From assembly GCA_025144245.1 (NCBI GenBank), contig JALXXC010000004.1:149594-213593 (forward strand): DNA of 64,000 bases, given 5' to 3'. Of this stretch, positions 1 to 64,000 are shown one piece after another. The notes under the pieces are model-generated. The model worked only from the letters and a program-made list of their open reading frames with translations, was not told where the DNA came from and made no database searches. Source of the DNA: Corynebacterium sp. p3-SID1145. GTDB taxonomy: Bacteria; Actinomycetota; Actinomycetes; Mycobacteriales; Mycobacteriaceae. Each line of letters begins with the position of its first letter. Position 1 is the stretch's first letter. A program made the position numbers and the translations under genes.

Positions 1-331
1 GCGCGGGTTGTGTGCGGAGGATCTTGCCCGGCCGGTCGAGCTGGTCGGCCGGGGCCGGCTCGTCGTAGAACGGGTCGTAGCCGTGTACCGGGGCACCGCC
101 CGGGGTCGTGGCCGCATGCTCGATGCCTTCACGGATTTCCTGGGCGGTCTGCGCTTGAGCCGCAGGGGTGCCCAGGCCGGCCGTGGTGCCATCCACCGCA
201 GCAGCGCTCAGTCCCGCAGCGGTGATGAATGCGGCGGCGGTGCGGGCAATGGTGCTCTTTCCACCCGATGAGCCCCGGTTCAGGCACAGACGGCGGGAAG
301 AAAGCAAGGTGTGGGAAACGACACGAATCAT
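1..331 (-). CDS. Secretory lipase, N-terminal part (runs off the left edge)
   Basis: Reading leftward from an ATG at 331, the open frame continues to the window edge and gives 110 residues. It starts with a long basic n-region and a hydrophobic stretch ending in an Ala-Gln-Ala type signal peptidase site near residue 61. The mature part contains DPFYDEP followed by PGKILRTQP, which resembles the mature N-terminus of actinobacterial secretory (LIP-family) lipases, where a DPFY...PG..LR motif precedes the alpha/beta-hydrolase core. The catalytic region lies outside the window, so the enzyme call is inferred from the N-terminal motif only. The expected role is secreted triacylglycerol or ester hydrolysis. 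Confidence 0.6.
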   Translation of the reverse strand, partial: MIRVVSHTLLSSRRLCLNRGSSGGKSTIARTAAAFITAAGLSAAAVDGTTAGLGTPAAQAQTAQEIREGIEHAATTPGGAPVHGYDPFYDEPAPADQLDRPGKILRTQPA

Positions 332-435
332 GCGTCGAATATTAAGCCAGTTTTGGGGATGTCGCGTGGTTTCTGTCGAAAAACGAGGGCGGTAGCGGGC
401 GCGGGGGTTGGGTGGCCGTCGTAAGATGTGGCGCT

Positions 436-606
436 ATGGGTTTGCTCTACAGGGATAAGAAGAAGGTCGGCAAGAACTCGTGGATCAACATGTCCAAATC
501 GGGTGCGTCGATGTCCACGAAGATGGGGCCAGTGACATTCAACTCGCGCGGCGGCGTGTGGGTGAAGCTGCCCGGTGGCATGACCTATCGCGGGCGCTGG
601 AAGTAG
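436..606 (+). CDS. DUF4236-type small protein
   Basis: This 56-residue basic protein begins MGLLYRDKKKVGKN and contains SKSGASMSTKMGP, the Leu-Ser-Lys-Ser-Gly-type turn seen in DUF4236 proteins, whose function is unknown. I chose the ATG at 436 rather than an in-frame one 24 bases upstream because a -10-like TAAGAT (422-427) ends 8 nt before it, which fits a leaderless transcript. There is no signal peptide or membrane segment. It stands alone between the divergent lipase and the convergent mutY. Confidence 0.55.
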   Translation: MGLLYRDKKKVGKNSWINMSKSGASMSTKMGPVTFNSRGGVWVKLPGGMTYRGRWK

Positions 607-668
607 CACGGAACAAGCGGGGAACAAGCACGGCACAAGCGGTTCTGGGCGGCCGTGCCGGGGTGCAG

Positions 669-1574
669 CTAGGGAAGGCGGAACTGCCCGTCGCTGTCTT
701 GCACGGCTAGCCCGTCGTCGAGAAGCGAGTACAGCGCCCGGGATCGCTGGCCGTCGTCGGGCCAAACGATGTCGATTGCTGCTTGCGGCACGGGGCCGCT
801 GGCTTCGCGCAGCACTTTCATGATTTTGCCGCGCACCTGCCGGTCGGTGCCGGCGAATTTCTGGACCTTGCGGCGGGCGAGCTCTTCCTCGGTGGGCGCA
901 GGTGAGCCGGCGGCGACCCAGGCGCAGGAGTCGAGCAGGGGGCAGGTCCCGCAGGCCGGGTTGGCGGCGGTGCACACCGTGGCGCCGAGTTCCATGAGGC
1001 CCGCTGAGAACACGGCGGCGCTGGAATCTGCAGGGTGGGCATGGCCAGCGGCATCGGCTGAGTCGGCGGCGGTGGGCAGCAGCGCCGCAACCCATTCCAG
1101 CTCAGCCTTCTGTGGGCGCGCGAGCGGCCGTCCGGCGACGGCACGCGCGTAGACGCGGCGCACGTTGGTGTCCACGACGGGCACAGCCTGCCCGTAGGCG
1201 AAGGCGGCGACGGCGCGGGCCGTGTAGTCGCCGATGCCGGGCAGGGCGAGCAACGAGTCGACGGAGGAGGGGACGCGGCCGTGGTGGTCGTCGACAAGCG
1301 ATTGAGCGCATTCTTTGAGGCGGAGCGCGCGGCGCGGGTAGCCGAGGGTACCCCACGCGCGCAGGACATCGTCTGTGGGCGCGGCGGCGAGGTCGGCGGG
1401 CGTGGGCCAGCGGGCGATCCATTCTTCCCAGATGGGGGCGACGCGGGCGACGGGGGTTTGGTGGCTCATCACTTCGGACAGCAGCACGCCCCAGGGGGTG
1501 GTGCCGGGGCGCCGCCAGGGGAGGTCGCGGGCGTTGTCGCGGTACCAGTCGATGATGTTCGCGGGATCAATCAC
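669..1574 (-). CDS. mutY: A/G-specific adenine glycosylase MutY
   Basis: MutY removes adenine mispaired with 8-oxoguanine in base excision repair. The 301-residue protein has the catalytic Glu in SEVMSHQT (residue 34), the helix-hairpin-helix LPGIGDYTA (from 111), the catalytic Asp of VVDTNVRRV (135), and a 4Fe-4S ligand set C-x6-C-x2-C-x5-C at about 201-217. The C-terminal part is short compared with the E. coli enzyme, as is usual in actinobacteria. The frame stays open further upstream, but the GTG at 1574 is preferred because the divergent carbonic anhydrase gene starts at 1597 and the homologous fold begins with IIDWYRDN. Confidence 0.93.
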   Translation of the reverse strand: MIDPANIIDWYRDNARDLPWRRPGTTPWGVLLSEVMSHQTPVARVAPIWEEWIARWPTPADLAAAPTDDVLRAWGTLGYPRRALRLKECAQSLVDDHHGRVPSSVDSLLALPGIGDYTARAVAAFAYGQAVPVVDTNVRRVYARAVAGRPLARPQKAELEWVAALLPTAADSADAAGHAHPADSSAAVFSAGLMELGATVCTAANPACGTCPLLDSCAWVAAGSPAPTEEELARRKVQKFAGTDRQVRGKIMKVLREASGPVPQAAIDIVWPDDGQRSRALYSLLDDGLAVQDSDGQFRLP

Positions 1575-1596
1575 AATACGTGCAAGAATAGTGGCT
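1575..1596. promoter_or_regulatory. Short divergent promoter gap mutY / carbonic anhydrase
   Basis: Only 22 bp separate the two divergent start codons. AAGAAT lies 7 nt before the carbonic anhydrase ATG, and TATTCT on the other strand lies 10 nt before the mutY GTG; the two hexamers overlap. This is the weakest member of a recurrent arrangement in this window, since neither hexamer-spacing pair is ideal. Confidence 0.35.
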
Positions 1597-2211
1597 ATGC
1601 CTTTCAGGAAGATTCCGCGGGATGCGTGGGCGCATCTTGAAGCGGGTAACGCGAGGTTCGCCAGCGAGCGCCCGGAGCACCCGAACACCAATGCTTATCG
1701 ACGCGCCGAGCTCCGCTCCGGCCAAGCCCCCTTCGCCGCAGTGCTGGCGTGCTCGGATTCGCGGGTGCCGGTGGAGATGCTTTTCGACGTCGGCCTCGGC
1801 GACCTCTTCGTCATCCGCACCGCCGGCGGCTGCGTCGACGCGGCAGTGACCGGCTCCCTGGAATACGCGGTGAAGTCGTTGGGTGTGTCCCTGATCGTGG
1901 TGCTGAGCCACGAGAGCTGCGGCGCGATCGGTGCGGCTGCATCGTCGTTCGAGGAAGGGGATTTGCCGGCTGATCTGACGCGCGTGTTCGTGGAGAAGAT
2001 CGCGCCGAGTGTCCTGGCTGCCCAGCGCGCCGGGCGCGACGACCGTGCCGGCATCGAGGAAGTCCACGCGGAGGTCACCGCGGAGCACATCATGGCCCGC
2101 ATTCCGGCTTTGCAGTCGAAGGTGGATGAAGGCAGCGTCGGTGTCGTCGCCGCAAGATACAGGCTTGAAGATGGCCGCGTCACAAGCGTTCAGGAGCATT
2201 TCGCGGGTTAG
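1597..2211 (+). CDS. Beta-class carbonic anhydrase
   Basis: This enzyme interconverts CO2 and bicarbonate and supplies bicarbonate to carboxylases. The 204-residue protein has the beta-class zinc ligands and catalytic dyad: ACSDSRVP gives Cys52, Asp54 and Arg56, and SHESCGAI gives His105 and Cys108. Length fits the family. There is no signal peptide, so it should be cytoplasmic. The ATG at 1597 directly precedes FRKIPRDAW, a normal start for actinobacterial homologues, and lies 22 bp from the divergent mutY start. No Shine-Dalgarno sequence is visible. Confidence 0.93.
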   Translation: MPFRKIPRDAWAHLEAGNARFASERPEHPNTNAYRRAELRSGQAPFAAVLACSDSRVPVEMLFDVGLGDLFVIRTAGGCVDAAVTGSLEYAVKSLGVSLIVVLSHESCGAIGAAASSFEEGDLPADLTRVFVEKIAPSVLAAQRAGRDDRAGIEEVHAEVTAEHIMARIPALQSKVDEGSVGVVAARYRLEDGRVTSVQEHFAG

Positions 2212-2220
2212 GATCACGGT

Positions 2221-3130: not shown

Positions 3131-4171
3131 CTAGACGATCCGGCGCAGCCCTTCCACAATGTGGCGCGCCCACAGCGGCGACACGTGCTCGGCCTCGGCG
3201 ATCTGCTCGGCGTCGGCGACCCGAATCGCGTCAAGGTCGCCGAACTGGGCGACGATGCGGTCGATGAGGGATTTCTGCACCCGCGGAATGCGGGACAGCG
3301 CCCGGTACCCGCGCGGGGTGACCGCCTCCATGAGGCTCTCCTCGGTCGCGGGCAGACCCAGAATGCTGGCTAGCGCGGAGGTGCTCAACAGCTCGGAGTC
3401 GGGGAGGAGGTCGAGGGAGTCGATGGTGTCGTCGATAAGCGAATTGCTCGGCGTGCCCTCCGCGACGAGGTAGTCGCACACCAGCATGGCGATGTCGTGG
3501 TAGATGTTGCCGCGCAGCTCGATGAGCTGGAGACGCAGCTGCCGCGCGTCGGAGCCGAGCTCGAGGATCTGGTCGTCAACGTCGCGGGCGGCGCGCTGCA
3601 GGAGCAGCTGGCGCTGAAGGAGGTGCAGGACGTCCTCGACCGTGGCGTAGCGGTTCATCTCCGCGACGCTGAGGCGCTGGTTCGCCTTATCGACGCGCAA
3701 ACGGTACTGCTCCACCGTCGCGATCGCCTGGCGGGCGCGCGTCATCATCACGCCGGGCTCCTCGATCGCGTGGCGTTTGCCGTCGGCGTAGACCGTGAGG
3801 ATGCCCATCGACGCCGACACCGACACAACCGGCACTCCCGTGTGCAGGGCCGTGCGCTCGGCGGCGCGGTGGCGGGTGCCCGTCTCGGAGGTCGGGAACG
3901 TCGGCGACGGCACGAGCTGGACGTTGGCGCGGGTGATGCGGGTGGCGTCGCCAGAAAGAATGACGGCACCGTCCATCTTCGCCAGCTCGCGCAGCAGCGT
4001 CGGGGTGAACGGCACGTCGAATTCGATGCCGCCGTCGCAGATTTCGGCGACCTCGGGGCCGTTGCCGATCACGATGAGTGCGCCTGTGCGGCCGCGTTTG
4101 ATGCGCTCGAGCCCGTCACGCAGCTCAGTGCCGGGCGCGAGACGCTGGAGCGTGTCACGCATGAAGGTCAT
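3131..4171 (-). CDS. disA: Diadenylate cyclase / DNA integrity scanning protein DisA
   Basis: DisA makes cyclic di-AMP from two ATP and binds branched DNA. The 346-residue protein has an N-terminal DAC domain with the DGA motif (67-69) and the RHR motif in GTRHRAAER (100-102), a helical middle region, and a C-terminal HhH DNA-binding domain (RGYRALSRIP). It lies directly downstream of radA with a 12 bp gap, the usual arrangement. A TAGACT hexamer (4181-4186, opposite strand) overlaps the radA stop codon 9 nt before the ATG, so disA may also have its own promoter. Confidence 0.96.
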   Translation of the reverse strand: MTFMRDTLQRLAPGTELRDGLERIKRGRTGALIVIGNGPEVAEICDGGIEFDVPFTPTLLRELAKMDGAVILSGDATRITRANVQLVPSPTFPTSETGTRHRAAERTALHTGVPVVSVSASMGILTVYADGKRHAIEEPGVMMTRARQAIATVEQYRLRVDKANQRLSVAEMNRYATVEDVLHLLQRQLLLQRAARDVDDQILELGSDARQLRLQLIELRGNIYHDIAMLVCDYLVAEGTPSNSLIDDTIDSLDLLPDSELLSTSALASILGLPATEESLMEAVTPRGYRALSRIPRVQKSLIDRIVAQFGDLDAIRVADAEQIAEAEHVSPLWARHIVEGLRRIV

Positions 4172-4183: not shown

Positions 4184-5629
4184 CTACTTTCGCTTGTCGA
4201 CGCACGCGATCGCCTCCCCCAGCGTCCCCACCTCCTCGACCCGCATGGCTGGGACGTTGGGGGAGCTGTTGGCTCGGCCCGCGGGGACGATCGCGTGTTC
4301 GTAGCCCAGGCGGGCCGCTTCAGTGAGACGGCGCTCCAGGTTGGGGACCCGGCGCAACTCGCCAGCGAGGCCGACTTCGCCGATGACGACGGTTTTGGAC
4401 GGCAGCGGCTGGTTGTGCAGGCTCGACCAGGTCGCAAGGGCCACTGCGAGATCCGTGGCGGTTTCTGTGATGCGCATGCCGCCGACTGTGGCGACGTAGG
4501 CGTCCTTGTCGTTCGTGCGCTCCCCGCAGCGCGCCTGGAGGACCGCGAGGACCATAGGCACCCGGTTAAAGTCGAGGCCCGTCACGACGCGGCGCGGCGA
4601 CTTGTTCACCGGGTCGACCGTGAGCGCCTGGACCTCCGCGAGAATGGGGCGCACACCGTCCATCGCGACAGTGACAGCCGAGCCGTCCGGCGTCTGCCCG
4701 CGGTGGGAGAGGAACAAGCCGGAGGGGTCGGGGACCTCCCGGATTCCGTCGGCCGTCTGCTCGAAGCAACCGACCTCGTCGGTGGCACCGAAGCGGTTCT
4801 TCATGCCGCGAAGCATGCGCAGGCTCGTTTGCCGGTCGCCTTCGAAGGTGAGGACGACATCGACCAGGTGCTCCAGCACCCGCGGGCCCGCGACGTTGCC
4901 GTCCTTGGTCACGTGCCCGACGAGGAGGATCGGAAGGTTGGTCGTCTTCGCCAGGGTGGTCAGCGCCGCAGTCACCGCGCGCGATTGCGCGACGCCGCCA
5001 GCCACGCCCTCGACGCCGGGTGCCTGCATCGTCTGCACCGAGTCGACGATCAGCAAGCTCGGCTTCACCGCGTCGACGTGGCCGAAGACCACATCCAAAT
5101 TGGATTCCGAGGCGAGGAAGAGCCTGTCGTTGAGCCCGCCCGTGCGCTCCGCGCGGCCGCGGACTTGGGCAGCGGATTCCTCCGCGGTGACGTAGAGGGC
5201 GGTGCGGCCGGAACCGGACTCGGACTTGGAATCGGAGCCGGACTCTGGTCCGGAGACGGAGTCGGCGGAGGCCCAGCGGCTGGCGACCTCGAGAAGCAGC
5301 GTGGACTTGCCCACGCCAGGTTCGCCGGAGAGGAGAACCACTGACCCGGGAACAACGCCTCCGCCGAGGACGCGGTCGAGCTCGGAAATGCCGGAAGGGC
5401 GTCGATAAGCGGCGCTCGCGGCGATCTTCGTGATTGGCTGCGCGGCGCTCGTGGGCGTCAACCCGCGGGGAGCTGGGCCCGCGGGGCCTACGGAGGAGGC
5501 GGCGGCAGAACGCGGCGCGCTAGCCTGCTCCTGGAGAGTGCCCCACGCGCCGCATTCGGGGCAGCGGCCGAGCCATTTCGGCGACGAGTAGCCGCACTCG
5601 GAACACGTGTGGACGGTGCGCTTCTTCAT
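4184..5629 (-). CDS. radA: DNA repair protein RadA (Sms)
   Basis: RadA is a RecA-like ATPase that helps branch migration in recombinational repair. The 481-residue protein has an N-terminal C4 zinc finger (Cys9, 12, 23, 26), a Walker A GEPGVGKST (102-110), the family-specific KNRFGATDE motif near residue 280, and a C-terminal Lon-like domain ending in EEVGTLGEAI. A Ser/Glu/Gly-rich insertion around residue 125 looks specific to this strain or group. It forms a unit with disA, with a lipoprotein gene upstream on the same strand. Confidence 0.96.
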   Translation of the reverse strand: MKKRTVHTCSECGYSSPKWLGRCPECGAWGTLQEQASAPRSAAASSVGPAGPAPRGLTPTSAAQPITKIAASAAYRRPSGISELDRVLGGGVVPGSVVLLSGEPGVGKSTLLLEVASRWASADSVSGPESGSDSKSESGSGRTALYVTAEESAAQVRGRAERTGGLNDRLFLASESNLDVVFGHVDAVKPSLLIVDSVQTMQAPGVEGVAGGVAQSRAVTAALTTLAKTTNLPILLVGHVTKDGNVAGPRVLEHLVDVVLTFEGDRQTSLRMLRGMKNRFGATDEVGCFEQTADGIREVPDPSGLFLSHRGQTPDGSAVTVAMDGVRPILAEVQALTVDPVNKSPRRVVTGLDFNRVPMVLAVLQARCGERTNDKDAYVATVGGMRITETATDLAVALATWSSLHNQPLPSKTVVIGEVGLAGELRRVPNLERRLTEAARLGYEHAIVPAGRANSSPNVPAMRVEEVGTLGEAIACVDKRK

Positions 5630-10781: not shown

Positions 10782-12236
10782 GTGACTCAACGCATTTTCG
10801 ATACCGCGACCCGCACACTCCGTGACTTCGAACCTGTCCGCGCCGGGCATGTCTCGATGTACGTGTGCGGGGCGACGCCGCAATCTTCGCCGCACATCGG
10901 GCATCTGCGCTCGGGGGTGGCGTTCGACATTGTGCGCCGCTGGTTCGCCGCGAACGGCAACGACGTGGCGTTCGTCCGCAACGTGACGGATATCGACGAC
11001 AAGATTCTCACCAAAGCCGCCGACAACGGCCGCCCGTGGTGGGAGTGGGTGTCCACGCACGAGCGCGAGTTCACGCGCGCCTACAACACGCTGAATGTGC
11101 TGCCGCCAAGCGTGGAGCCGCGTGCGACGGGGTTCGTGACGCAGATGGTCGAGTACATGCAGCGTCTCATTGACAACGGTTTCGCCTACGCGGCGGACGG
11201 GTCGGTGTACTTCGATGTCGCGGCGTGGGTCGCGGCGGACGGGTCGGATTACGGCTCGCTGTCGGGCAACCGCGTCGAGGAGATGGAGCAGGGCGAGTCC
11301 GATGTACGCGGGAAGCGCGGTGCACACGACTTCGCCCTGTGGAAGGCGGCGAAGCCGGGGGAGCCGAGTTGGCCGACTCCGTGGGGCGACGGCCGCCCGG
11401 GCTGGCACCTGGAGTGCTCGGCGATGTCCACGTGGTATCTCGGCGCGGAGTTCGACATCCACGGCGGCGGGCTCGACCTGCAGTTCCCGCACCACGAGAA
11501 CGAGCAGGCGCAGTCGCACGCCGCGGGCGACGGTTTCGCGCACTACTGGATGCACAACCACTGGGTGACCATGGCTGGCGAGAAGATGTCGAAGTCGCTG
11601 GGCAACGTGCTGTCCATCGACAACATGCTCGAGGACGTGCGCCCGGTGGAGTTGCGCTATTACCTCGGTTCAGCGCACTACCGCAGCGTGCTCGAGTACT
11701 CGCCGGCGGCGCTGCAGGAAGCGGCAGTCGCTTATCGACGAATCGAGGACCTCATCTCCCGCACCTCCCGCTCCGGGCTCGTCGAACGCGGGACCTGGAC
11801 CGACGGTTTCGCCGCCGCGATGAACGAGGATTTCGCTGTGCCTAAAGCCCTGGCCGAGATCCACAACACCGTGCGCGCGGCCAACAAGGCGCTCGCCGAC
11901 GGAGATGCCGGAACCGCTCGTGAACTCGCCGGCTCGGTGCGCGCGATGACGGCTGTGCTCGGTGTCGACCCGGTGGAGTGGGTTGACAGGGCAGGCACTG
12001 CAGGCGCCGCGGGCGCTGGTGGTGCGGGCGCGGCTGGTGGCGCCGCCGCCGGTGATTCGGCGGGTGCCGCGGCTGCCCTCGATGTGCTGGTCACTGCGGA
12101 GCTGGAGCGCCGCGCGCAGGCCCGCGCCGAGAAAGACTGGGCCACCGCCGACGAGGTGCGCGACCGCCTCACTGCCGCGGGCATTGAAGTGACGGACACC
12201 GCTGATGGTGCGACGTGGGAGCTGAAGGGAAACTAG
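10782..12236 (+). CDS. cysS: Cysteinyl-tRNA synthetase
   Basis: CysS charges tRNA-Cys. The 484-residue class I synthetase has the HIGH motif as PHIGHLRS near residue 38, zinc ligands beginning with YVCGATPQ, and the KMSKS motif in [10 protein letters not shown]. The start is a GTG at 10782, 6 nt after TAGACT (10770-10775), suggesting a leaderless mRNA. A roughly 30-residue Ala/Gly-rich insertion occurs near residues 403-432, between the anticodon-binding helices; it is low complexity and probably a surface loop. rlmB follows 3 bp downstream, as in other corynebacteria. Confidence 0.96.
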
Positions 12237-14339: not shown

Positions 14340-15452
14340 ATGGCGCAAAGACGGGGCACGCTGGCATCGATCGCGGCGGAGGTGGGGGTGTCCCGCACGA
14401 CGGTGTCGAATGCGTACAACCACCCGGATCAGTTGTCGCCGGAGCTGCGGGAGCGGATCCTGGCGGTGGCGCGGGCGCGGGGCTACACGGGGCCGGACCC
14501 GACGGCGCGGAGCCTGCGGACGCGCCAGGCGGGGGCCGTCGGGGTGATCTTGACGGAGCATTTGGGCTACGCGTTTGAGGACCAGGCGTCGATTGATTTC
14601 CTGGCTGGGCTGTCGGAGAGCTCTGCGGGGGCGGGCACGGCCCTGACGCTCATTCCGCTCGGCCCGAACCAGGGCACGGGAATCAGCCCGCTCATTGCGG
14701 GCGCGCTTGTCGACGCCTTCGTCGTCTACTCCGTCCCCCAGTCCGAGCCCCATCTCGCGGCAGTGCGCGCCCGCGGGGTGCCGGTGGTGGTGTGCGATCA
14801 GCCGTACCCGTCCGGCGGCGGCGCGTATGTGGGTATCGACGACGCGGAGGCGGTCAAGCCGGCGGCACGGGCGCTGGTGGAGGCGGGGCATGAGCGGATC
14901 GGGATCGTCGGCAAGCGGCTGTTCAGCGACGAGTCCCGCGAGGGTGCCGTCACCCCGGCGGAGGTCGCGTCTGCCGACATGCACGTCCAGCGCGGCCGCA
15001 TCCAGGGGGCGCTGGAGGTGTTCGCGGAGGCGGGCATCTCAGAGGTGCCCATCGTGACGCGGCACTTCAACGACCACGCCTCAGCAGTCGATGCCGCACG
15101 CGCGCTTTTCGATGCCTCCCCCCACCTCACCGCCGTCCTCTGCACCACCGACTCAATGGCGTTGGGGGTGCTGGACTACTGCGCCCGGGCGGGCCTCCAC
15201 GTGCCCGGCGATGTGTCCGTCACGGGTTTCGACGGCGTTGAACAAGCGCTCGCCCGGGGACTCACGACAGTCGTGCAGCCCAACAAGCTCAAAGGGGAGA
15301 CCGTGGGGAAGGTGCTCACCGAGCTGACCGAGCTGACCGAGCTGACCGAGCTGACCGAAGCCGCGGGGGAAGCAGAAGCAACGCCGCCGCGCATTCTTCT
15401 GCCGACGGAATTCAGCCGCGGGCAGACTGTCGCGCCGCCGCGAGCTCGGTGA
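14340..15452 (+). CDS. ipsA: LacI-family transcription regulator, probable IpsA
   Basis: The 370-residue protein has an N-terminal LacI helix-turn-helix (TLASIAAEVGVSRTTVSNA), then a periplasmic-binding-protein-like effector domain ending in the GFDGVEQA region. In C. glutamicum the LacI regulator next to otsB is IpsA, which responds to myo-inositol and activates inositol-phosphate synthase; the same neighbourhood here supports orthology. Near the C-terminus a 9-bp tandem repeat encodes five Leu-Thr-Glu triplets (15315-15359). The 3' end overlaps the convergent otsB by 41 bp. Confidence 0.75.
   Translation: MAQRRGTLASIAAEVGVSRTTVSNAYNHPDQLSPELRERILAVARARGYTGPDPTARSLRTRQAGAVGVILTEHLGYAFEDQASIDFLAGLSESSAGAGTALTLIPLGPNQGTGISPLIAGALVDAFVVYSVPQSEPHLAAVRARGVPVVVCDQPYPSGGGAYVGIDDAEAVKPAARALVEAGHERIGIVGKRLFSDESREGAVTPAEVASADMHVQRGRIQGALEVFAEAGISEVPIVTRHFNDHASAVDAARALFDASPHLTAVLCTTDSMALGVLDYCARAGLHVPGDVSVTGFDGVEQALARGLTTVVQPNKLKGETVGKVLTELTELTELTELTEAAGEAEATPPRILLPTEFSRGQTVAPPRAR
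15315..15359 (+). repeat. Coding 9-bp tandem repeat, five units
   Basis: Five consecutive units of CTGACCGAG (first unit CTCACCGAG, last CTGACCGAA) encode five Leu-Thr-Glu triplets in the C-terminal part of the LacI regulator. The three middle units are identical, so slippage would add or remove residues in steps of three without breaking the frame. Confidence 0.9.
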
Positions 15453-16239
15453 GGAAATCCGCGACCTCGGCGACGGAGCCGAGCTGGTGGCTCGCGGCAG
15501 TGGCAGTGGTTGAGCATGCGGCAGGAGCAGCGGCGCCGGAAGCCTTGGCGGGCCGGACCTTGACGCCGACATCTGGTCCCGCACTCGCGCCCGCGCCCGC
15601 ACCCGTGTCGAGGACTTCGAGCGCGGTCTCGTCGGTTACGTCGTCGCCGGCGAACAAGGTCGCTGCGTACCGGGTCTTCTCGGCGGCGAGCCAGGTGCCC
15701 TTCGTGATGTCGACGGCGGAGAACTCCAGAACGTTGTGTCCGGGCGTGACGGGTCGGCCGTCCGTGGGGATCTCCCTGGCCCGCGCGAGGAGCGAGGCGG
15801 CGGTGTCGGGGTCGGCGGCGGCGAGTTTCGCCACGTGCAGGACGCGCTGGTAGGGCTTGATTTCGATGAAGGCGGAGGGGTGGGCGTCGATAAGCGGGGC
15901 GAGTTCGTCCTGGATCCGCGCGAGGTACGCGCGGTCGTCGTCGCTGAGTGTGGGCCCGCCTGAGGCCGGTTCGGCGCCGTGCGAACCGACGAGGGTGACG
16001 GGCGGGCCGAGCGGGCAGACCCGGCGCAGTCCGTCGAGGTGGCGGCCCGAGAGAATGGCGACGCCCGTGCCCGGCAGCCCGGCGAGGGTCTCCAGCGCGG
16101 CAAGCGCGCGCGGGTCGGGGGTGACGGCGTACGCGTCGGTGCCCAGGGGACAGATGGTGCCGTCGAAATCCATGCAGACCAGCAACGTTTCAGCGCCGGC
16201 GAGGCGGTCGAGGGCGGTGCGCGGGTCGGGCAGCGTCAT
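15412..16239 (-). CDS. otsB: Trehalose-6-phosphate phosphatase OtsB
   Basis: OtsB dephosphorylates trehalose 6-phosphate to trehalose. The 275-residue HAD-superfamily enzyme has motif I DFDGTICPL near residue 24, a Ser-containing motif II (AILSGR), the KPYQRVLHVA region, and FAGDDVTDETAL as motif IV. An Ala-rich stretch in the C-terminal third is less conserved. The ATG at 16239 overlaps the stop codon of the upstream lipoprotein by 4 bp, and otsA lies one gene further upstream, so the trehalose genes form one coupled unit. Confidence 0.94.
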   Translation of the reverse strand: MTLPDPRTALDRLAGAETLLVCMDFDGTICPLGTDAYAVTPDPRALAALETLAGLPGTGVAILSGRHLDGLRRVCPLGPPVTLVGSHGAEPASGGPTLSDDDRAYLARIQDELAPLIDAHPSAFIEIKPYQRVLHVAKLAAADPDTAASLLARAREIPTDGRPVTPGHNVLEFSAVDITKGTWLAAEKTRYAATLFAGDDVTDETALEVLDTGAGAGASAGPDVGVKVRPAKASGAAAPAACSTTATAASHQLGSVAEVADFLTELAAARQSARG

Positions 16240-16673: not shown

Positions 16674-17980
16674 CGCTCCACCTCCCGCAGCGCGCCGAGG
16701 AATGAATCGGCCCAGTGCGCGACATCGTGCTCGAGGACCTGCGCATTCATGGCCAGCATGGCATCTCGCGCCTCAGGGCTATTTTGCTTGTCGACGGCCC
16801 CCATAATCGCCCCTTTCACCGACTCAATGTCGAACGGGTTGCACAGGTGCGCCCGGTCCAGCTCCACTGCCGCGCCGGCGAACTCGGACAGCACGAGTGC
16901 GCCGCTGCCGTCCGGGTGACAGGCGACGTACTCCTTGGCCACGAGATTCATTCCGTCCTTGAACGGGGTGACCAGCATGATGTCGGCGGCGGAGTAGTAG
17001 TCCCGCAGCTGGGACTTGGGCACCGAGTGGTGCTCATAGTGCACGACCGGGTTGCCGAGCTTCCCGTACCGGCCGTTGATGCGCCCGACCGCCTCTTCTA
17101 CGCCCGCGCGGGTTTTCTTGTAGCTGGCGATGCGCTCACGCGATGGTGTGGCTACCTGGATCATGGCGACGGACTCGAGGCGGCCTTCGTCGAGAAGCTC
17201 TTCGACCGCGGTGAGGCGCTGCAGGATGCCCTTGGTGTAATCGAGCCGGTCCACGCCCAGCATCAAGGTGCGGGGGTTGGCGACGGAGCCGCGGACCTCG
17301 GCGATTGCGTTGTCGCCGGCACGCGCGAAGCCCGACGTGTCGATTGAGATGGGGAACGTGCCTGTACGCGGCGCCGCGGTGGCGAGTTCCCGGAAGTTGG
17401 CTTCGTCGCGCGTGCGCTGGAAACCGATCAGGTCGGCGCCTTCCAGGCCGCGGAGGACCTCGTCGCGCCACGGCAACTGCCGGAACAAGTCCGGAGCAGG
17501 GAAGGGGATGTGCAAGAAGAACCCGATGGTCACGTCCGGGCGGAGCTCGCGCAGTATGCCCGGGACGAGCTGGAGCTGGTAATCCTGCACCCAGACGGTG
17601 GCGCCTTCCGCCGCGACATCGGCCGCCGCGCGCGCGAATTTCTCGTTGACCGAGCGGTACTGCTGCCACCAGGAGCGGTGGTAGATCGGGGTGACGATCA
17701 GGTCGTGGTACAGCGGCCAGAGCGTGGAATTGGAGAAGCCCTCGTAGAAGAGGTGGTAGTCATCGTCGTCAAGCTGCACGGGGCGGAGAGTGACGCCGTC
17801 GTTGTCGAACGGCTCGAAGCTCGCTCCCGGCTCCCCGGGCCAGCCAACCCAGCAGCCCTGATTCGCCTTGAGTACGGGCGACAAAGCCGCCACGAGTCCG
17901 CCCGGCGACGCCACCCACTTCCCGCCGACATGGTCGACCGGCAAGCGGTTGGCGACGACGACGAACTGGCTATCCCTCAT
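16670..17980 (-). CDS. otsA: Trehalose-6-phosphate synthase OtsA
   Basis: OtsA joins glucose from UDP-glucose to glucose 6-phosphate, giving trehalose 6-phosphate, the precursor of trehalose for osmoprotection and mycolate carriers. The 436-residue GT20 protein starts VVVANRLPVDH, has the GGLVAAL glucose-6-phosphate loop, WVQDYQLQLVP, GVDRLDYTKG, and the C-terminal TPFKDGMNLVAKEYVA with LSEFAGAA. It is somewhat shorter than the typical 470-490 residues. The ATG at 17980 overlaps the upstream lysine-rich gene by 11 bp. Confidence 0.95.
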   Translation of the reverse strand: MRDSQFVVVANRLPVDHVGGKWVASPGGLVAALSPVLKANQGCWVGWPGEPGASFEPFDNDGVTLRPVQLDDDDYHLFYEGFSNSTLWPLYHDLIVTPIYHRSWWQQYRSVNEKFARAAADVAAEGATVWVQDYQLQLVPGILRELRPDVTIGFFLHIPFPAPDLFRQLPWRDEVLRGLEGADLIGFQRTRDEANFRELATAAPRTGTFPISIDTSGFARAGDNAIAEVRGSVANPRTLMLGVDRLDYTKGILQRLTAVEELLDEGRLESVAMIQVATPSRERIASYKKTRAGVEEAVGRINGRYGKLGNPVVHYEHHSVPKSQLRDYYSAADIMLVTPFKDGMNLVAKEYVACHPDGSGALVLSEFAGAAVELDRAHLCNPFDIESVKGAIMGAVDKQNSPEARDAMLAMNAQVLEHDVAHWADSFLGALREVER

Positions 17981-44893: not shown

Positions 44894-45643
44894 TCACCCG
44901 CCGGCGGACGGGGCGATGGGGGAGAGCAGCTCCGGAGTGAGCGTCACCGCGTACTGCTGTGCGGAGAAACGGATCGACCCGCCCGCCACCTCGACCAAGT
45001 CGGCCTGGGCGCCGATGGGGAGCTCGCGGGTGTCCAATTCGAGCGTGTAGGCGTCGGTGACGGCGGCGGCGAGGTTCGGTGGGACGTCGATAAGCTGTTT
45101 CGGCTCCATGTGGAACTGCGTGCCGTCGATACGGAGGGTGACCACCGCGGACGTCTTTTCGTCGGTGCCCGGGACTGTGCCGGTGAGCTGTGCTTCGCTC
45201 GCAGTGCCGCCGGCAGGCGAAATGTCGTACGGGTTGGCGATATCCAAGTCGGTCATGCCGAGCAGCTGCCCGAAAGCGACGCCGTCGAGCGAGAGAGTGT
45301 GCTCGATGCGCTTGGCCTTGGCTCCCGCGAAATCCGCGGCGAATGCGCGGGCGGGGTCGATGGTGACGTCGTAGATATCGGTGCGCGAATTCGCGGTGCC
45401 CACCCCCTCAACATCGACGTCGAGGGCCTGGAAACTCACGCGCGGCACCTTGCCCGTGACTGCGACCTGGGCGAACGGGAAGCCGCCCACATACGTGTCG
45501 GGATCCCCTGGGAGGCCGTCGGCATCGCGGGCGTGGGCGGCCAGTTCGCGCTCCACGTGCGCCGCGTACCCCGCGTCTACCCCGAATGCGAGCGCCACCG
45601 CACCCGCGACGACACCCGCGGTGACCAAACCCTTCGCCTTCAT
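44894..45643 (-). CDS. DUF2993 / LmeA-like exported protein
   Basis: The 249-residue protein has one N-terminal hydrophobic segment and then DPDTYVGGFPFAQVAVTGKVPRVSFQALDVD, which matches LmeA-family (DUF2993) proteins with TULIP-like lipid-binding folds. In mycobacteria LmeA affects lipomannan elongation in the periplasm, and a similar cell-envelope role here is inferred. The ATG at 45643 has TACGGT (45655-45650, opposite strand) 6 nt before it. It diverges from mshD by 22 bp. Confidence 0.85.
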   Translation of the reverse strand: MKAKGLVTAGVVAGAVALAFGVDAGYAAHVERELAAHARDADGLPGDPDTYVGGFPFAQVAVTGKVPRVSFQALDVDVEGVGTANSRTDIYDVTIDPARAFAADFAGAKAKRIEHTLSLDGVAFGQLLGMTDLDIANPYDISPAGGTASEAQLTGTVPGTDEKTSAVVTLRIDGTQFHMEPKQLIDVPPNLAAAVTDAYTLELDTRELPIGAQADLVEVAGGSIRFSAQQYAVTLTPELLSPIAPSAGG

Positions 45644-51174: not shown

Positions 51175-51203
51175 TCGCTATTGCTTGTCGACGCTCTCCC
51201 GCG

Positions 51204-51947
51204 CTACTTCTTGGCCTGCCGATGCCCGAAGTACTGCTCGAGTTCGAGGAAGCGCTCGTCTAACTCGAGCTCCTTGCCGTCGGCGTCTTTCTTGCGCTCG
51301 TAGCGTTCAGGGGTCAGGCCGGTGACGAGGTAGACGATGCGGGCGGCGACGTTCACGCAGTGGTCGGCGTAGCGTTCGTAGTAGCGCCCCAGTAGGGCGA
51401 GGTCGACGGCGGTGCGGCTGGTTCCTTCCCAGTCGCGGGCGGTGACGCTGTTGAGCAGGTGCTGGTTCAAGGCGTCGAGCTCGTCGTCGAATTGACTCAT
51501 GGCCAATGCGCCCTCGACGTCGGGGCTGATCAACTGGTCGTGGATGAGGTCGCCCATGGTGTCCACAAGGCGGGCGAGTTCGACGACGGTGGGGCGCATG
51601 GTGTCGTCGTAGACGAACTCGGGGTGGCGCAGCCGCGCGGTGCTGGCGATGTGACGCCCCAGGGTGCCCATGCGGTTGAAGTCCTCCACGATGTAGATCG
51701 AAGTGAAGACCTGGCGGAGGTCGGAGGCGACGGGGCTTTCAAGAGCCAGGAGGGCCATGCTGCGCTCTTCGCAGCGGACACGGATTTCTTTGATCGTGTC
51801 GGCTTCGGTGAGGGCGGTTTCGGCGTCTTCGAGGGTGCCGTCGATAAGCGATTTGGACGCGTAACGCATGACGCTGCGCACCGTGTCGCTCATGCTTTGC
51901 AGGTCCTGCGAGAAAGCGTTGAGATGCTCTCGGTAGATGGTGCGCAT
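51204..51947 (-). CDS. phoU: Phosphate signalling protein PhoU
   Basis: PhoU couples Pst transport status to the histidine kinase and limits phosphate uptake. The 247-residue all-helical protein has two PhoU domains: MRTIYREHLNAFSQDLQSM with CEERSMALLALESPVASDLRQV in the first (D-L-R-x-V) and YYERYADHCVNVAARI with metal-binding Asp/His-type residues in the second. It is transcribed opposite to pstSCAB, as in C. glutamicum, rather than as the last pst gene. The start ATG has GAGGA 7 nt upstream. dusB lies 11 bp upstream on the same strand. Confidence 0.95.
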   Translation of the reverse strand: MRTIYREHLNAFSQDLQSMSDTVRSVMRYASKSLIDGTLEDAETALTEADTIKEIRVRCEERSMALLALESPVASDLRQVFTSIYIVEDFNRMGTLGRHIASTARLRHPEFVYDDTMRPTVVELARLVDTMGDLIHDQLISPDVEGALAMSQFDDELDALNQHLLNSVTARDWEGTSRTAVDLALLGRYYERYADHCVNVAARIVYLVTGLTPERYERKKDADGKELELDERFLELEQYFGHRQAKK

Positions 51948-53128: not shown

Positions 53129-53231
53129 TGTTCCTTCTTCCGTTGCCGCCGCACAAACTACCGTGGGACAACCGCTTATCGACGCCCCGATTTCTCCCCA
53201 TCCCCAACTGCCCGCTACCATGAATGCGCAC

Positions 53232-55771: not shown

Positions 55772-56536
55772 ATGGTGGCGTTCGTAATTTGTTTATTCGC
55801 TGGCTTATCGACGGCCCTCGGCGGCCTCTTCGTCGCCCTCCAACGCCACCCGGGCGAACGATTTCTCGCGGTGTCCCTCGGCTTCTCCGCGGGGGTGATG
55901 CTCTACATTTCCCTTGTGGAGCTCCTCCCCGAAGGCGTTGAGGGGCTCGAGGAAGCCGGGTACGCATCGGCCCGCGTTTGGGGACCGGTGGCCTTCTTCG
56001 CTGGTGTACTGCTCATCGCGGTGATCGACCGGTTCGTGCCCGAGGACATCAACCCCCACGAGGAGCCAAATCCGGCCGGCGGAAGCCGCATGCGCAAAGT
56101 CGGGGTGATGACGGCGGTGGCGATCGCCGTCCACAATTTTCCCGAAGGGTTCGCCACATTCTTCGTCGCCCTGCAGGACATGACGCTGGCACTGCCGATC
56201 GCCGTCGCGATCGCGATCCACAACATTCCGGAGGGCATCGCCGTCGCCGTGCCGATCCGCGAAGCGACCGGCAAGAAGTGGGCCGCAGCCGGGTGGGCCG
56301 CTCTGTCCGGACTCGCTGAGCCGCTGGGCGCCGTTATCGGGTACCTGTTCCTGCGGCCCTTCCTCGGCCCCGCCGCTTTGGGGGTCGTGTTCGCGGTCAT
56401 CGCCGGCATCATGGTGTTCGTCAGCCTGGACAAGCTCCTGCCCACCGCGATTGCGACGGGCCGCCACCACAGCGCGGTCTACGGTGTCGTCGGGGGAATG
56501 GCGGTCATGGCACTCAGCCTGATTTTGCTCGGCTAA
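55772..56536 (+). CDS. ZIP-family metal transporter (ZupT-like)
   Basis: The 254-residue protein has eight hydrophobic segments and the ZIP binuclear metal site: AVHNFPEGFATF in helix 4 and AIHNIPEGIAVAVP in helix 5, each with His-Asn-x-Pro-Glu-Gly. The first helix carries no signal peptide. ZIP proteins import Zn2+, Fe2+ or Mn2+. It starts 6 nt after a -10-like TAGGCT. The substrate cannot be chosen from sequence, and no Zur box lies in its 23 bp promoter gap. Confidence 0.92.
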   Translation: MVAFVICLFAGLSTALGGLFVALQRHPGERFLAVSLGFSAGVMLYISLVELLPEGVEGLEEAGYASARVWGPVAFFAGVLLIAVIDRFVPEDINPHEEPNPAGGSRMRKVGVMTAVAIAVHNFPEGFATFFVALQDMTLALPIAVAIAIHNIPEGIAVAVPIREATGKKWAAAGWAALSGLAEPLGAVIGYLFLRPFLGPAALGVVFAVIAGIMVFVSLDKLLPTAIATGRHHSAVYGVVGGMAVMALSLILLG

Positions 56537-56625: not shown

Positions 56626-57220
56626 GTGGTAGTGAACAACGCCGGCGAATCCCAATCCGGCCCCTTCGAGGAGCTGCCACGCGAAGCCCTGGAACGTCTC
56701 TTCCAGGTCAACGTGCTCGGGCACGTCGATTTCACGCAGCGCCTCCTGCTCGCCATGCGCGCCTCTGCCCGCCAGGGAAGTGGCGGCCGCATCGTCATGG
56801 TCGGATCCATGCTGGGGAGTTTTCCCCTCGGCTTCCGCTCCTCCTACGTCGCCACTAAAGCCGCCGTCAAAGGCTTCGCCACAGCCGCGCGCCGGGAGCT
56901 GGCCCCGCACGGTATCGGCATCTCCACCGTCGAGTCTGGGGCGATCGCGACGGGGATTTCGGAAAGGAGGACGGGGTACGTCGATAAGCACGGCCCCTAC
57001 GCCCGCGACTACGGCCGCATGCTCGGGAAGCTGAACAGGAACGAAGCTGGCGGAATCAGCGCCGAACGCGTAGCCCGTGAAATCCTCCGGCCCATCCGCG
57101 CCACCCGCCCACGCGCGCTCCGTGGCCTTCAGGTCCATGGCGCGCGTCGCGTTTCCGCTCGCGCGCCTCGTTCCGCAGCAAGTCATGCTCAACATCATCA
57201 GCGCCAAGCACGACCTGTAG
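56626..57220 (+). pseudogene. Short-chain dehydrogenase remnant, 5'-truncated and frameshifted
   Basis: The sequence opens at VNNAGESQSGPFEE, the middle of an SDR, with the catalytic Ser in MVGSMLGS and Tyr/Lys in SSYVATKAAVKG. The N-terminal Rossmann half with the TGxxxGxG motif is missing; the bases before it hold only a short unrelated frame with a stop codon (TAG at about 56627 in that frame). Near 57110 the reading changes frame: another frame encodes VAFRSMARVAFPLARLV then QQVMLNIISAKHDL, a normal SDR end, stopping at 57218-57220. It therefore has two lesions and is not expected to be functional. Confidence 0.75.
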
Positions 57221-57457: not shown

Positions 57458-57584
57458 TTTGCATGCTTATCGACGTTTTCCAACGCTGTTTTCCACATTC
57501 CGTCGGCCTGGTACTTGCGCAGTTTGTAGGTACCGAGATCTCTTTGTTCGTTTTTCACATGCCGTTGACCTTGTGGTTCTTGGG

Positions 57585-60411: not shown

Positions 60412-60450
60412 CGCCCCCTCGGCCTGAAGGTTTTGATTCAGGGAGGGGGC
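60412..60450 (-). terminator. Terminator between cysK and cysE
   Basis: CGCCCCCTC (60412-60420) pairs with GAGGGGGC (60443-60450), and inside it CCTGAA pairs with TTCAGG, giving a long two-step hairpin read after cysK on the minus strand. An exact copy of the window-wide 11-mer adjoins it at 60453-60463. Confidence 0.65.
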
Positions 60451-60472
60451 GGCGTCGATAAGCGGAAAATGC

Positions 60473-61534: not shown

Positions 61535-61550
61535 TAGACCGAGCAGTCCA
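61535..61550 (-). promoter_or_regulatory. McbR-like operator upstream of cysK
   Basis: TAGAC-N6-GTCCA differs by one base from the TAGAC-N6-GTCTA palindrome bound by the sulfur-amino-acid repressor McbR in C. glutamicum. It lies about 20 bp upstream of the likely -10 of cysK, where a repressor could block -35 recognition. Confidence 0.65.
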
Positions 61551-61610
61551 ATCCAAATGAACCGCACGGTTTGGCGTGGTGACGTGCGGATGCTCGTGAT
61601 CCTGTGAGCC

Positions 61611-61696
61611 GGGGGTAGCTGGCATCGGGCGCAAGATGTTGATTCGGACTCATGCGTGTGGGCATCTGTGGCCCGGTCAATGATTTTGCTACCCCC
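61611..61696. promoter_or_regulatory. Candidate RamA autoregulatory sites
   Basis: GGGGGTAGC (61611-61619) and GCTACCCCC (61688-61696) are exact inverted 9-mers 68 bp apart. RamA of C. glutamicum binds G4-6 or C4-5 stretches of this kind, and controls its own gene. The second site lies just upstream of the likely ramA -10. Confidence 0.5.
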
Positions 61697-61793
61697 GTAG
61701 CCGGGTTAGTATGGTCCTACCTGTACTGCAGACGCCGATTTACGCCCACCGGTGGGGACACTCTAATGGGGGGCTTTCCATGAAGGAGTTGGA

Positions 61794-62633: not shown

Positions 62634-62651
62634 CCGCGGGACATTTTTCAT

Positions 62652-62657
62652 TACCCT
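62652..62657 (+). promoter_or_regulatory. -10 element of murA, leaderless
   Basis: TACCCT ends exactly 7 nt before the GTG at 62665. This marks the GTG, rather than an in-frame start further upstream, as the likely murA start. Confidence 0.5.
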
Positions 62658-62664
62658 GGTGGGC

Positions 62665-63921
62665 GTGAAAGAGCGTTTTCTGGTTCAAGGTGGAGCATGT
62701 CTGCAGGGTTCGGTCCGGGTGGCGGGCGCGAAGAACAGTGTGCTCAAGCTGATGGCGGCGGCGCTGCTCGCGGAGGGCACGACAACGCTGAACAACTGCC
62801 CGGAGATCCTCGATGTCCCGTTGATGCAGAAGGTCCTGGAGGGCCTGGGGTGCGAGGTGGAGATCGACGGCACTGTTGTGCGGATCCATACGCCGGCCAA
62901 TGTGTCGCCACGCGCGGATTTCGACGCGGTGCGGCAGTTCCGCGCGTCGGTGGCGGTCCTGGGGCCGTTGACAGCGCGTTGCGGTGAGGCGGTTGTCGCG
63001 TTGCCCGGCGGCGACGCAATTGGATCGCGGCCGCTGGATATGCACCAGTCGGGGCTGGAGAAATTGGGGGCGAGCACCCATATCGAGCACGGTGCGGTCG
63101 TGGCCCGCGCGGCTCAGCTGAGCGGCGCGAAGATCAGTCTGGACTTCCCGTCGGTCGGCGCGACCGAGAATATTCTTACCGCTGCGGTGCTTGCCGACGG
63201 CCGCACGATCCTCGACAACGCTGCCCGCGAGCCAGAGATCGTGGACCTGTGTGACATGCTCAACTCCATGGGGGCGCAGATTCAGGGGGCGGGAACGTCG
63301 ACGGTGACGATCGATGGCGTCGATAAGCTCAGGCCCACGGAACACACGGTGGTCGGCGATCGAATTGTTGCAGGTACGTGGGCATATGCCGCGGCAATGA
63401 CGGGCGGGGACGTGACGGTGGGCGGGATCGCGCCGCGCCACCTGCATCTCGCGCTGGCGAAGCTGAAGAACGCCGGCGCCACAGTCGAGACTTACGAGCA
63501 GGGCTTCCGCGTGCGCATGGACGGACGCCGCCCACAAGCGGTGGACTACCAGACCTTGCCTTTCCCCGGCTTCCCGACGGACTTGCAGCCGATGGCGATC
63601 GGGCTCGCCGCGATTGCGGAAGGCACGTCGGTGATCACGGAGAATGTCTTCGAATCGCGATTCAGGTTCGTCGACGAGATGCTCCGCCTGGGGGCGGACG
63701 CGACAGTGGACGGGCACCATGTTGTGCTGCGCGGCGTGGAGAAACTCTCGTCGACCGATGTCTGGTCGTCCGACATTCGTGCGGGTGCCGGCCTCGTGTT
63801 GGCGGGGCTCGTTGCCGACGGTGAGACAGTCGTGCACGATGTGGAGCACATCGACCGAGGTTATCCCCACTTTGTGGAGCACTTGAACGCGCTCGGAGCG
63901 AACGTGGAACGCGTGTCTTAA
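62665..63921 (+). CDS. murA: UDP-GlcNAc 1-carboxyvinyltransferase MurA
   Basis: MurA transfers enolpyruvate from PEP to UDP-GlcNAc, the first committed peptidoglycan step. The 418-residue protein has the start [32 protein letters not shown] (split by family variations) and the catalytic loop [15 protein letters not shown]. In this loop Asp117 replaces the usual Cys, as in M. tuberculosis MurA, which confers fosfomycin insensitivity. The gene is next to ramA as in C. glutamicum, where a second murA exists elsewhere. Confidence 0.95.
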
Positions 63922-63939
63922 CGCAGGTCAGGCGTGTGA

Positions 63940-63968
63940 AAGGGCATTCGCTTATCGACGAAGCCCTT
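63940..63968 (+). terminator. Hairpin after murA containing the 11-mer
   Basis: AAGGGC (63940-63945) pairs with GCCCTT (63963-63968) and TTCG with CGAA inside it. The loop is formed by an exact copy of the window-wide 11-mer (63950-63960). No long T-tract follows, so termination strength is unclear. The window ends 32 bases later. Confidence 0.5.
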
Positions 63969-64000
63969 AAAAGGGCCGAAAATGCGTCTTGCGCTGGGGA

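What the first reader, a model, noticed from the sequence alone, without database searches (positions are those of the whole stretch)
1..64000. A dispersed 11-mer, GCTTATCGACG, occurs at least 21 times exactly
An 11-mer should appear about 0.03 times on both strands of 64 kb by chance, before any composition correction. Here at least 21 exact copies occur, about one per 3 kb. Twelve are in reverse orientation and nine forward, so it is not strand-polarised. It is read in several frames (Leu-Ile-Asp, Ala-Tyr-Arg-Arg, Val-Asp-Lys, Ser-Ile-Ser, Leu-Ser-Thr), and uses codons rare at high GC, TTA at 55804 and ATA at 21765. The DNA word therefore appears to be selected, not a protein motif. Four copies are intergenic, and three of these adjoin or sit inside hairpin terminators (57465, 60453, 63950). 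A variant with G at position 5 resembles the TTATCCAC/TTGTCCAC pair of DnaA boxes, but with G instead of C. Possible roles include a DNA-uptake sequence, a nucleoid-protein or chromosome-organisation site, or a methylation target.
Basis: seen in the sequence. Interest (0 to 1): 0.9.

Follow-up and report, generated by a model that had tools for sequence, protein, structure and literature searches.

The report
Corynebacterium's genome-wide directional 46-base DNA tag
Many Corynebacterium species carry, hundreds of times per genome, an 11-letter DNA word usually followed on one side by a 35-base C-rich stretch, kept at the DNA level and changing in 'dialects' between groups, most like the tags some other bacteria use to recognise their own DNA when taking it up.

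Summary
In detail: 21 exact copies in the window (shuffle mean 0.01) and 494 in the genome, 248+/246-. The host is Corynebacterium. In 242 genomes of the genus the word has 0 to 782 copies, 100 or more in 113. Other clades use dialects such as GCTTGCCGAYG.

The word is only part of the element. On its 3' side, positions +11 to +45 are C-rich and G-poor on the word's strand, returning sharply to background at +46, in sense, antisense and intergenic sites alike. Same-strand neighbours exclude each other within about 1 kb (19 pairs, 51 expected); opposite-strand neighbours do not. No dependence on strand, gene context or gene position was found. Word and tract diverge less than flanks between two strains.

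So this is a directional, roughly 46-bp chromosomal element under DNA-level selection or drive. Best reading: a DNA-uptake (self-recognition) signal, analogous to Neisseria DUS and Haemophilus USS but of independent origin; uptake itself is not shown and no receptor was found. RecBCD-Chi, KOPS and terminator readings fit worse. Counterexample: one lineage (G316) has the word without the tract.

The parts
1693..1738 (+). word 1693-1703 plus 3' tract (C19 G9 of 35)
3395..3440 (-). word 3430-3440 plus 3' tract (C20 G3); sense LID frame of 3131-4171
5365..5410 (-). word 5400-5410 plus tract (C16 G8); sense AYR frame of a radA-like gene (named by eye)
11730..11775 (+). word plus tract (C17 G6); sense AYR frame
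15850..15895 (-). word 15885-15895 plus tract (C18 G3)
21727..21772 (-). word 21762-21772 plus tract (C16 G5); antisense SIS frame using ATA
24388..24433 (+). word plus tract (C21 G6); GCTTCTCGACG in the orthologue L001
28376..28421 (-). word 28411-28421 plus tract (C19 G6); antisense VDK frame
28633..28678 (+). word plus tract (C18 G6); sense LID frame
36414..36459 (-). word 36449-36459 inside purL plus tract (C19 G6); intact in 4 of 5 orthologues, one base changed in L071
42143..42188 (+). word plus tract (C18 G9); antisense VDK frame
43149..43194 (-). word 43184-43194 plus tract (C19 G8); sense LID frame
45050..45095 (-). word 45085-45095 plus tract (C20 G7); intact in 5 of 5 orthologues
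51804..51849 (-). word 51839-51849 plus tract (C16 G7), in a phoU-like gene (named by eye)
53174..53219 (+). word plus tract (C20 G3), just upstream of tRNA-Lys
55803..55848 (+). word plus tract (C18 G8); sense LST frame using TTA
56944..56989 (-). word 56979-56989 plus tract (C16 G5)
57465..57510 (+). word plus weak tract (C12 G6), intergenic, downstream of tRNA-Asp
60418..60463 (-). word 60453-60463 plus tract (C16 G6), intergenic; a terminator-like stem (60430-60414) overlaps the tract
63283..63328 (-). word 63318-63328 plus tract (C17 G7); antisense VDK frame
63950..63995 (+). word without a C-tract (C9 G9), intergenic
1254..1299 (-). position-5 variant GCTTGTCGACG (1289-1299) with tract (C19 G7)
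4192..4237 (+). variant GCTTGTCGACG with tract (C21 G5)
14705..14750 (+). variant GCTTGTCGACG with tract (C18 G6)
16786..16831 (+). variant GCTTGTCGACG with tract (C16 G4)
51183..51228 (+). variant GCTTGTCGACG with tract (C16 G8)

Best explanation
SHOWN: many Corynebacterium chromosomes carry hundreds of copies of a directional element of about 46 bp: an 11-bp core (GCTTATCGACG here; GCTTNNCGAYG across the genus) plus, in most lineages sampled, a 35-nt C-rich, G-poor tract on the 3' side of the core's strand. It is kept at the DNA level, independently of gene strand and position, and same-orientation copies exclude each other within about 1 kb. INFERRED: it is a DNA-uptake (self-recognition) signal. 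A surface DNA receptor, plausibly a minor pilin of the conserved Tad locus or ComEA, binds core plus tract; import of donor DNA then starts at the site and runs in one direction through ComEC, and homologous recombination copies the imported stretch, site included, into the recipient. This uptake bias drives new sites to spread where no same-orientation site already serves the next 1-2 kb, spares foreign islands, and lets clades drift into dialects.
For: Genome-wide, both strands: 248+/246-, control 1; roughly even in genus genomes (of 149 with 50 or more copies, 3 deviate at P<0.02: 20/39, 166/123, 32/58). Far above Markov expectation: 92 vs 1.28 in own sequence, 112 vs 1.63 in G158. Clade dialects, as in DUS and USS (PMC3630211, PMC12616744, PMC7811141; passages seen). 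One-sided C-tract extension over 393 sites of four genomes; USS cores also have an extension, AT tracts (PMC7811141 and PMC12616744 passages). Same-strand exclusion: 19 pairs under 1 kb against 51 expected, opposite strand 63 against 52; 150 control 8-mers gave a median same-strand ratio of 1.32, and the three lowest of them are pieces of the word itself. Transcription-independent: 0.49, 0.52 and 0.47 sites/kb in divergent, convergent and tandem gaps, 0.22 in genes, flat along genes. Maintained: 41 sites shared between two strains; tract divergence 20/1470 vs 44/1722 upstream (Fisher P 0.016) with sites taken from G000, 24/1610 vs 46/1886 (P 0.052) from G326. Changes at sites are mostly substitutions in place. 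GC-poor windows are site-poor, and the two site-free gaps inspected hold transposases. Machinery: ComEC in 241 of 242 genomes, TadA-like ATPase in 80 of 80, ComEA beside ComEC in the own genome (named by eye). Micrococcus luteus, also an actinobacterium, has competence-related tadA1, tadA2 and comEA (PMC6667448 passages).
Against: No uptake was tested, and my listings showed no paper on natural transformation in Corynebacterium. ComEC and TadA are equally present in genomes without the word, so no gene tracks it and no receptor is identified. Unlike DUS/USS, close inverted pairs are not in excess (opposite strand under 250 bp: 15 vs 13.1 expected) and terminator-type gaps are not preferred. 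G316 has the word (26 in 82 kb with L057, 0.53 expected) but no C-tract. Same-strand exclusion has not been described for DUS/USS to my knowledge, and I had no yardstick genome. An excess of opposite-strand pairs at 3-4 kb (83 vs 51.6; Poisson P 3.5e-5, one of ten bins) is unexplained. Overall spacing is not more even than random in own and G158 (gap CV 0.99, 0.97), though it is 0.75 in G243 (35 sites) and 0.93 in G151.
Confidence: 0.55

Rival explanations
1. A Chi-like recombination site: a resecting helicase-nuclease other than RecBCD (for example AdnAB) is switched at the element and recombination is raised on one side over 1-2 kb.
For: Directional, about one per 5 kb in the own genome, same-strand exclusion over about 1 kb, kept at the DNA level. 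Directional decay over a few kb is recalled for E. coli Chi.
Against: RecC (PF04257) was found in 0 of 80 genus genomes tested. No strand preference in four blocks of 280-400 kb. Dialects within a genus and loss in many species are unlike Chi, and AdnAB is not known to answer to Chi (both recalled). A 46-bp site is far longer than any Chi that I recall. AdnAB was not searched here.
Confidence: 0.15
2. A chromosome-organisation or segregation site (a nucleoid protein, SMC- or FtsK-type motor) read directionally.
For: Broad coverage of the sampled chromosome, directional sequence, avoidance of same-strand redundancy.
Against: No strand preference within blocks as KOPS would need; not palindromic; 73 of 242 genomes have 10 or fewer copies, and of these only 18 have 100 or more of the GCTTGCCGAYG dialect. 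GC-poor windows are avoided.
Confidence: 0.12
3. A mutational footprint: a nick or repair patch starting at the word makes the C-over-G bias, without selection on the tract.
For: Sharp 35-nt end of the bias; frame-independent.
Against: The tract diverges less, not more, than its flanks between strains (20/1470 vs 44/1722; 24/1610 vs 46/1886). Word without tract exists. It would still not explain the word.
Confidence: 0.07
4. An RNA-level element such as a Rho-type C-rich/G-poor terminator or processing signal.
For: C-rich, G-poor stretches resemble rut regions (recalled).
Against: Antisense and sense sites carry the same tract. Density does not depend on transcription context or on position in the gene; in tandem gaps 28 sites are sense and 20 antisense.
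Confidence: 0.04

Closest known systems
DNA uptake sequence (DUS) of Neisseriaceae
   Same: Short word, hundreds of copies or more, clade dialects around a fixed core (PMC3630211 passages)
   Different: No shared sequence; 3' C-tract; fewer copies; no excess of close inverted pairs; another phylum; uptake and receptor not shown
Uptake signal sequence (USS) of Pasteurellaceae
   Same: Core plus extension, dialects, evolves by point mutation (PMC7811141 and PMC12616744 passages)
   Different: The extension is a continuous 35-nt C-over-G tract, not AT tracts; same-strand exclusion seen here (not computed for USS); no excess of close inverted pairs or of terminator-type gaps
Chi recombination sites
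   Same: Directional, dispersed, similar spacing (recalled)
   Different: RecC found in 0 of 80; no strand preference in blocks; much longer site; dialects and loss within one genus
KOPS/SRS motifs read by FtsK/SpoIIIE
   Same: Directional, dispersed, genome-wide (recalled)
   Different: No strand preference in 280-400 kb blocks

Membership tests
DNA uptake sequence (DUS/USS) | Short word strongly over-represented genome-wide in both orientations | tested here: met
DNA uptake sequence (DUS/USS) | Clade-specific dialects around a fixed core | tested here: met
   the GCTTCTCGACG dialect rests on four 22-kb loci only
DNA uptake sequence (DUS/USS) | Sites arise and decay by point mutation in place | tested here: met
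   most changed sites differ by one to three bases in ungapped alignments; a few orthologous positions are too diverged to tell
DNA uptake sequence (DUS/USS) | Preferential uptake of DNA bearing the word (the defining property) | not testable with these tools
   needs an uptake assay
DNA uptake sequence (DUS/USS) | Host encodes uptake machinery | tested here: met
   ComEC 241 of 242, TadA-like 80 of 80, ComEA in own genome by eye; not specific to word-rich genomes
DNA uptake sequence (DUS/USS) | Word bound by a pilus receptor (ComP-like) | not testable with these tools
   no candidate singled out; tad loci of 5 word-rich and 4 word-poor genomes share their order by eye, except that TadB and TadC look fused in 3 word-poor ones and two small genes were not called in G138
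DNA uptake sequence (DUS/USS) | Frequent close inverted pairs in terminators (typical, not defining) | tested here: not met
   15 opposite-strand pairs under 250 bp vs 13.1 expected; similar density in all gap types
DNA uptake sequence (DUS/USS) | Depleted in foreign DNA | tested here: inconclusive
   1 site in 7 windows with GC below 0.58; two site-free gaps inspected by eye hold transposases; plasmids and phages not tested
Chi site | RecBCD present | tested here: not met
   PF04257 in 0 of 80
Chi site | Recognised by some resecting helicase-nuclease | not tested
   AdnAB not searched or assayed
KOPS/SRS | Polarised along each replichore | tested here: not met
   26+/25-, 60+/52-, 50+/51-, 46+/43- in 280-400 kb blocks; replichores were not mapped
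Intrinsic terminator or RNA element | Located at 3' ends in sense orientation | tested here: not met

The most novel reading that the evidence does not exclude
Actinobacteria possess their own uptake-signal system, of independent origin from the two known families: a polar element whose 11-bp core marks self DNA and whose 35-nt C-over-G tract sets the direction of import, so that each element serves about 1-2 kb on one side and the chromosome is covered separately in the two directions. The word even reshapes the proteome: the tripeptide VDK is about 3-4 times as frequent as in sampled genomes without this word.
Probability: 0.4. Interest if true: 0.95.

Novelty: new variant of a known kind. 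Interest (0 to 1): 0.85.

Why it matters
[quoted passage not shown] A third, independent system in a mycolate-bearing actinobacterial genus would show that self-recognition tags evolve repeatedly, would predict natural transformation in a medically and industrially important genus, and would make the origin and dialect shifts of such tags testable across 242 genomes. If it is not an uptake signal, the genus still has a directional, genome-wide 46-bp element, not described in the papers I could search, that needs a reader protein.

Tried and rejected
Protein motif: rejected; five frames, antisense and intergenic copies. Chance or composition: rejected. P-loop coding as the source of GCTTGCCGACG: unlikely in the tuberculostearicum group, where 28 words in eight loci carry the C-tract (skew 0.30); not excluded for G316, which lacks it. 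Strict orientation alternation: strong in own sequence (66 of 89, shuffle mean 45.6) but weaker in G158 (63 of 111, 55.6), G297 (54 of 88, 44.5) and G206 (59 of 100, 50.5), and not clear in G243 (20 of 34, 17.1) or G151 (7 of 16, 8.2); the underlying effect is same-strand exclusion, which is weaker when position-5 variants are included (0.51, 0.45, 0.59 in the first three bins). Convergent versus divergent preference among close opposite pairs: none consistent. ComEC or TadA as the gene that separates word-rich from word-poor genomes: no. RecBCD-Chi: no RecC. Literature, listings only unless said. The exact-string search found 125 papers holding the word or a piece of it, 20 listed, none of them by title about this; no listed title reported a Corynebacterium uptake sequence. 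PMC5217627 mentions Corynebacterium for CRISPR repeats (passages); PMC1852404 has no match for Corynebacterium. Not done: E. coli Chi and H. influenzae USS as yardsticks for exclusion; plasmids and phages; AdnAB; genome-wide count of GCTTCTCGACG and GCTTGTCGACG; C. glutamicum and C. diphtheriae by name.


Full report
OBSERVATION. GCTTATCGACG occurs 21 times in the window (9+, 12-), against a mean of 0.01 in dinucleotide shuffles. In the whole own assembly (2,368,688 bases, 31 contigs) it occurs 248 times forward and 246 reverse; the word read backwards occurs once. In 464 kb of own sequence it occurs 92 times where a 4th-order Markov model expects 1.28.

HOST AND SPREAD. Gene content (by eye) and the named PurL relatives place the window in Corynebacterium; L001 (Corynebacterium sp. 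Marseille-P3884) is 94% identical in PurL. Of 150 relatives of the GTDB family searched, the 140 in other genera have 0-7 copies. Of 242 genomes of the genus, 234 have at least one copy; totals range from 0 to 782; 113 have 100 or more and 73 have 10 or fewer. Of those 73, 18 have at least 100 copies of GCTTGCCGAYG and 55 have fewer than 50. I tested 46 named genomes out of the 62 loci that I treated as Corynebacterium (one of them, L026, is titled only Mycobacteriaceae): high counts include Marseille-P3884 679, C. urinipleomorphum 529, C. gottingense 478, C. meitnerae 465 and C. tuscaniense 407; low ones include C. pygosceleis 1, C. phocae 2 and C. spheniscorum 4.

DIALECTS. Position 5 is loose (own sequence: A 92, G 29, C 27, T 24). 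Clades lean to other versions: GCTTGCCGACG in the tuberculostearicum group, GCTTGCCGATG in the accolens/macginleyi group, AGCTTGCCGATGCCCCC in G243, and GCTTCTCGACG in the mucifaciens/haemomassiliense group. The last rests on four 22-kb loci (25 copies against 3 of the word); genome-wide those four genomes still have 186-321 copies of the window's word, and the C version was not counted genome-wide. C. tuberculostearicum SK141 has 307 GCTTGCCGAYG against 97 of the word; C. macginleyi 184 against 4; TAE3-ERU12 534 against 52. In 60-kb samples (40 kb for one) of seven low-count genomes no 11-mer was comparably enriched; the strongest was one with 6 copies in G054.

THE SECOND HALF OF THE ELEMENT. 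Over 393 sites of four genomes (own, G158, G297, G206), corrected for codon position and strand, C is raised and G depleted on the word's strand from +11 to +45 and both are back to background at +46; upstream, -3 to -1 show clear preferences and -11 to -5 weaker ones. In own plus G158 the bias is alike in the main sense frame (89 sites), the main antisense frame (45) and intergenic sites (45): C 0.50-0.52, G 0.17-0.21 at +11..+30, so it is not a codon effect. It follows the dialect words of most word-rich clades sampled and the near-cognates changed at positions 3, 4, 5 and 6; it is weaker in lowii/oculi and alimapuense/tapiri/lubricantis (skew 0.17-0.18) and not seen in word-poor and outgroup samples, where the words are few. 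Exception: G316 (taken to be TAE3-ERU12, since both word counts agree) has, with L057, 26 words in 82 kb (0.53 expected) and no tract. In the window 20 of 21 copies have at least twice as many C as G in the 35 bases; 63950 does not, nor do the three GCTTCTCGACG variants.

LAYOUT. In six blocks of four genomes, same-strand pairs are depleted at short range: 2 of 12.8 expected under 250 bp, 4 of 12.8 at 250-500, 13 of 25.5 at 500-1000, 14 of 25.5 at 1000-1500, near normal from 2-3 kb. Opposite-strand pairs are not depleted (15 of 13.1, 14 of 13.1, 34 of 26.1, 27 of 26.1), and at 3-4 kb are in unexplained excess (83 of 51.6). For 150 of 151 control 8-mers of similar abundance the median same-strand ratio under 1 kb is 1.32, against 0.38 for the word; the lowest control that is not a piece of the word has 0.84. 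Among adjacent neighbours under 1 kb, 61 are opposite and 18 same (binomial P 1.3e-6). Four blocks of 280-400 kb show no strand preference. Density is 0.22 per kb in genes and 0.47-0.52 in all three kinds of intergenic gap, and flat along genes (gene calls by my own rough script). These facts fit an element that acts in one direction over 1-2 kb, at the DNA level.

CONSTRAINT. Against the orthologous 20-22 kb of five relatives, the sites at 36449 and 45085 are intact in 4 and 5 of 5. For sites taken from the window, word identity is 0.97 (L001), 0.96 (L071), 0.88 (L003), 0.83 (L002) and 0.75 (L061), against flank identity of 0.82, 0.86, 0.73, 0.76 and 0.74; for sites taken from the relatives it is 0.91, 0.92, 0.83, 0.86 and 0.91 against 0.84, 0.83, 0.71, 0.72 and 0.71 (3-9 sites per comparison, and L061 shows no excess in the first direction). 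Between two strains of the species over about 197 kb (divergence 0.023), 41 sites are shared, 1 aligned site is exact only in G000 and 5 only in G326; word divergence is 1/462 or 5/506 depending on which strain defines the sites, tract 20/1470 or 24/1610, upstream 44/1722 or 46/1886 (Fisher P for tract against upstream 0.016 and 0.052). The proteome bends to the word: 91 of 122 LID tripeptides followed by a G are encoded by it, and VDK has 37 per 100,000 residues against 9 in word-poor samples and 11 in G243 plus G151.

FOREIGN DNA. Five-kb windows with GC below 0.58 hold 1 site in 7 windows. The largest site-free gap in own contig C1 holds what look like an IS256-type transposase and a type III restriction system, and that of G158 transposases and an arsenic cluster, judged by eye from translations. 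Only these two gaps were inspected.

MACHINERY. ComEC is in 241 of 242 genomes, a TadA-like ATPase in 80 of 80 that I picked by word counts (36 word-rich, 44 word-poor; 79 over the family cut-off), and the own genome has comEA-comEC and a seven-gene tad locus beside a DEAH helicase (named by eye). None separates word-rich from word-poor genomes. RecC is in 0 of 80.

JUDGEMENT. The anatomy and evolution match uptake signals better than any other known kind: over-representation in both orientations, dialects on a fixed core, a one-sided extension, point-mutational turnover and scarcity in GC-poor DNA. The sequence is unrelated to DUS and USS, and the C-tract, the same-strand exclusion and the lack of terminator pairing differ. 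Uptake, receptor and direction of import are inference. Chi-like action by another helicase is the main rival.

Noticed in passing
G151 stretch L135-L144: A REP-like family (GACTTTTTGGACTC, GACTCCGCGTC, GGACTCGGAGTC) gives the most enriched 11-mers in this 200 kb, ahead of the word dialect.
   Followed up: no
L010, L020, L028 (near purL): Repeats of AAGGGCGACA / CAAGGACGGC, up to 25 copies of one 10-mer in a 22-kb locus; L078 and L007 have an AGCTAGCTCC repeat.
   Followed up: no
own contig C1 270-281 kb (L098, L099): GC-poor island with what look like an IS256-type transposase and a type III restriction-modification pair, free of the word.
   Followed up: partly
L172, L173, L174: TadB and TadC look fused into one protein in three word-poor genomes (G138, G213, G166) but are separate in the five word-rich ones inspected and in G054.
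   Followed up: partly
G269 comEC: ComEC frame holds one in-frame TGA in a word-poor genome; G162, G237 and G370 give two ComEC matches, perhaps broken frames.
   Followed up: no
G386 contig C16 about 3-58 kb: Site positions look mirror-symmetric, which suggests a palindromic or misassembled contig in the C. bouchesdurhonense record.
   Followed up: no
site pairs of own, G158, G206, G297: Opposite-strand pairs at 3-4 kb are in excess (83 vs 51.6 expected).
   Followed up: no
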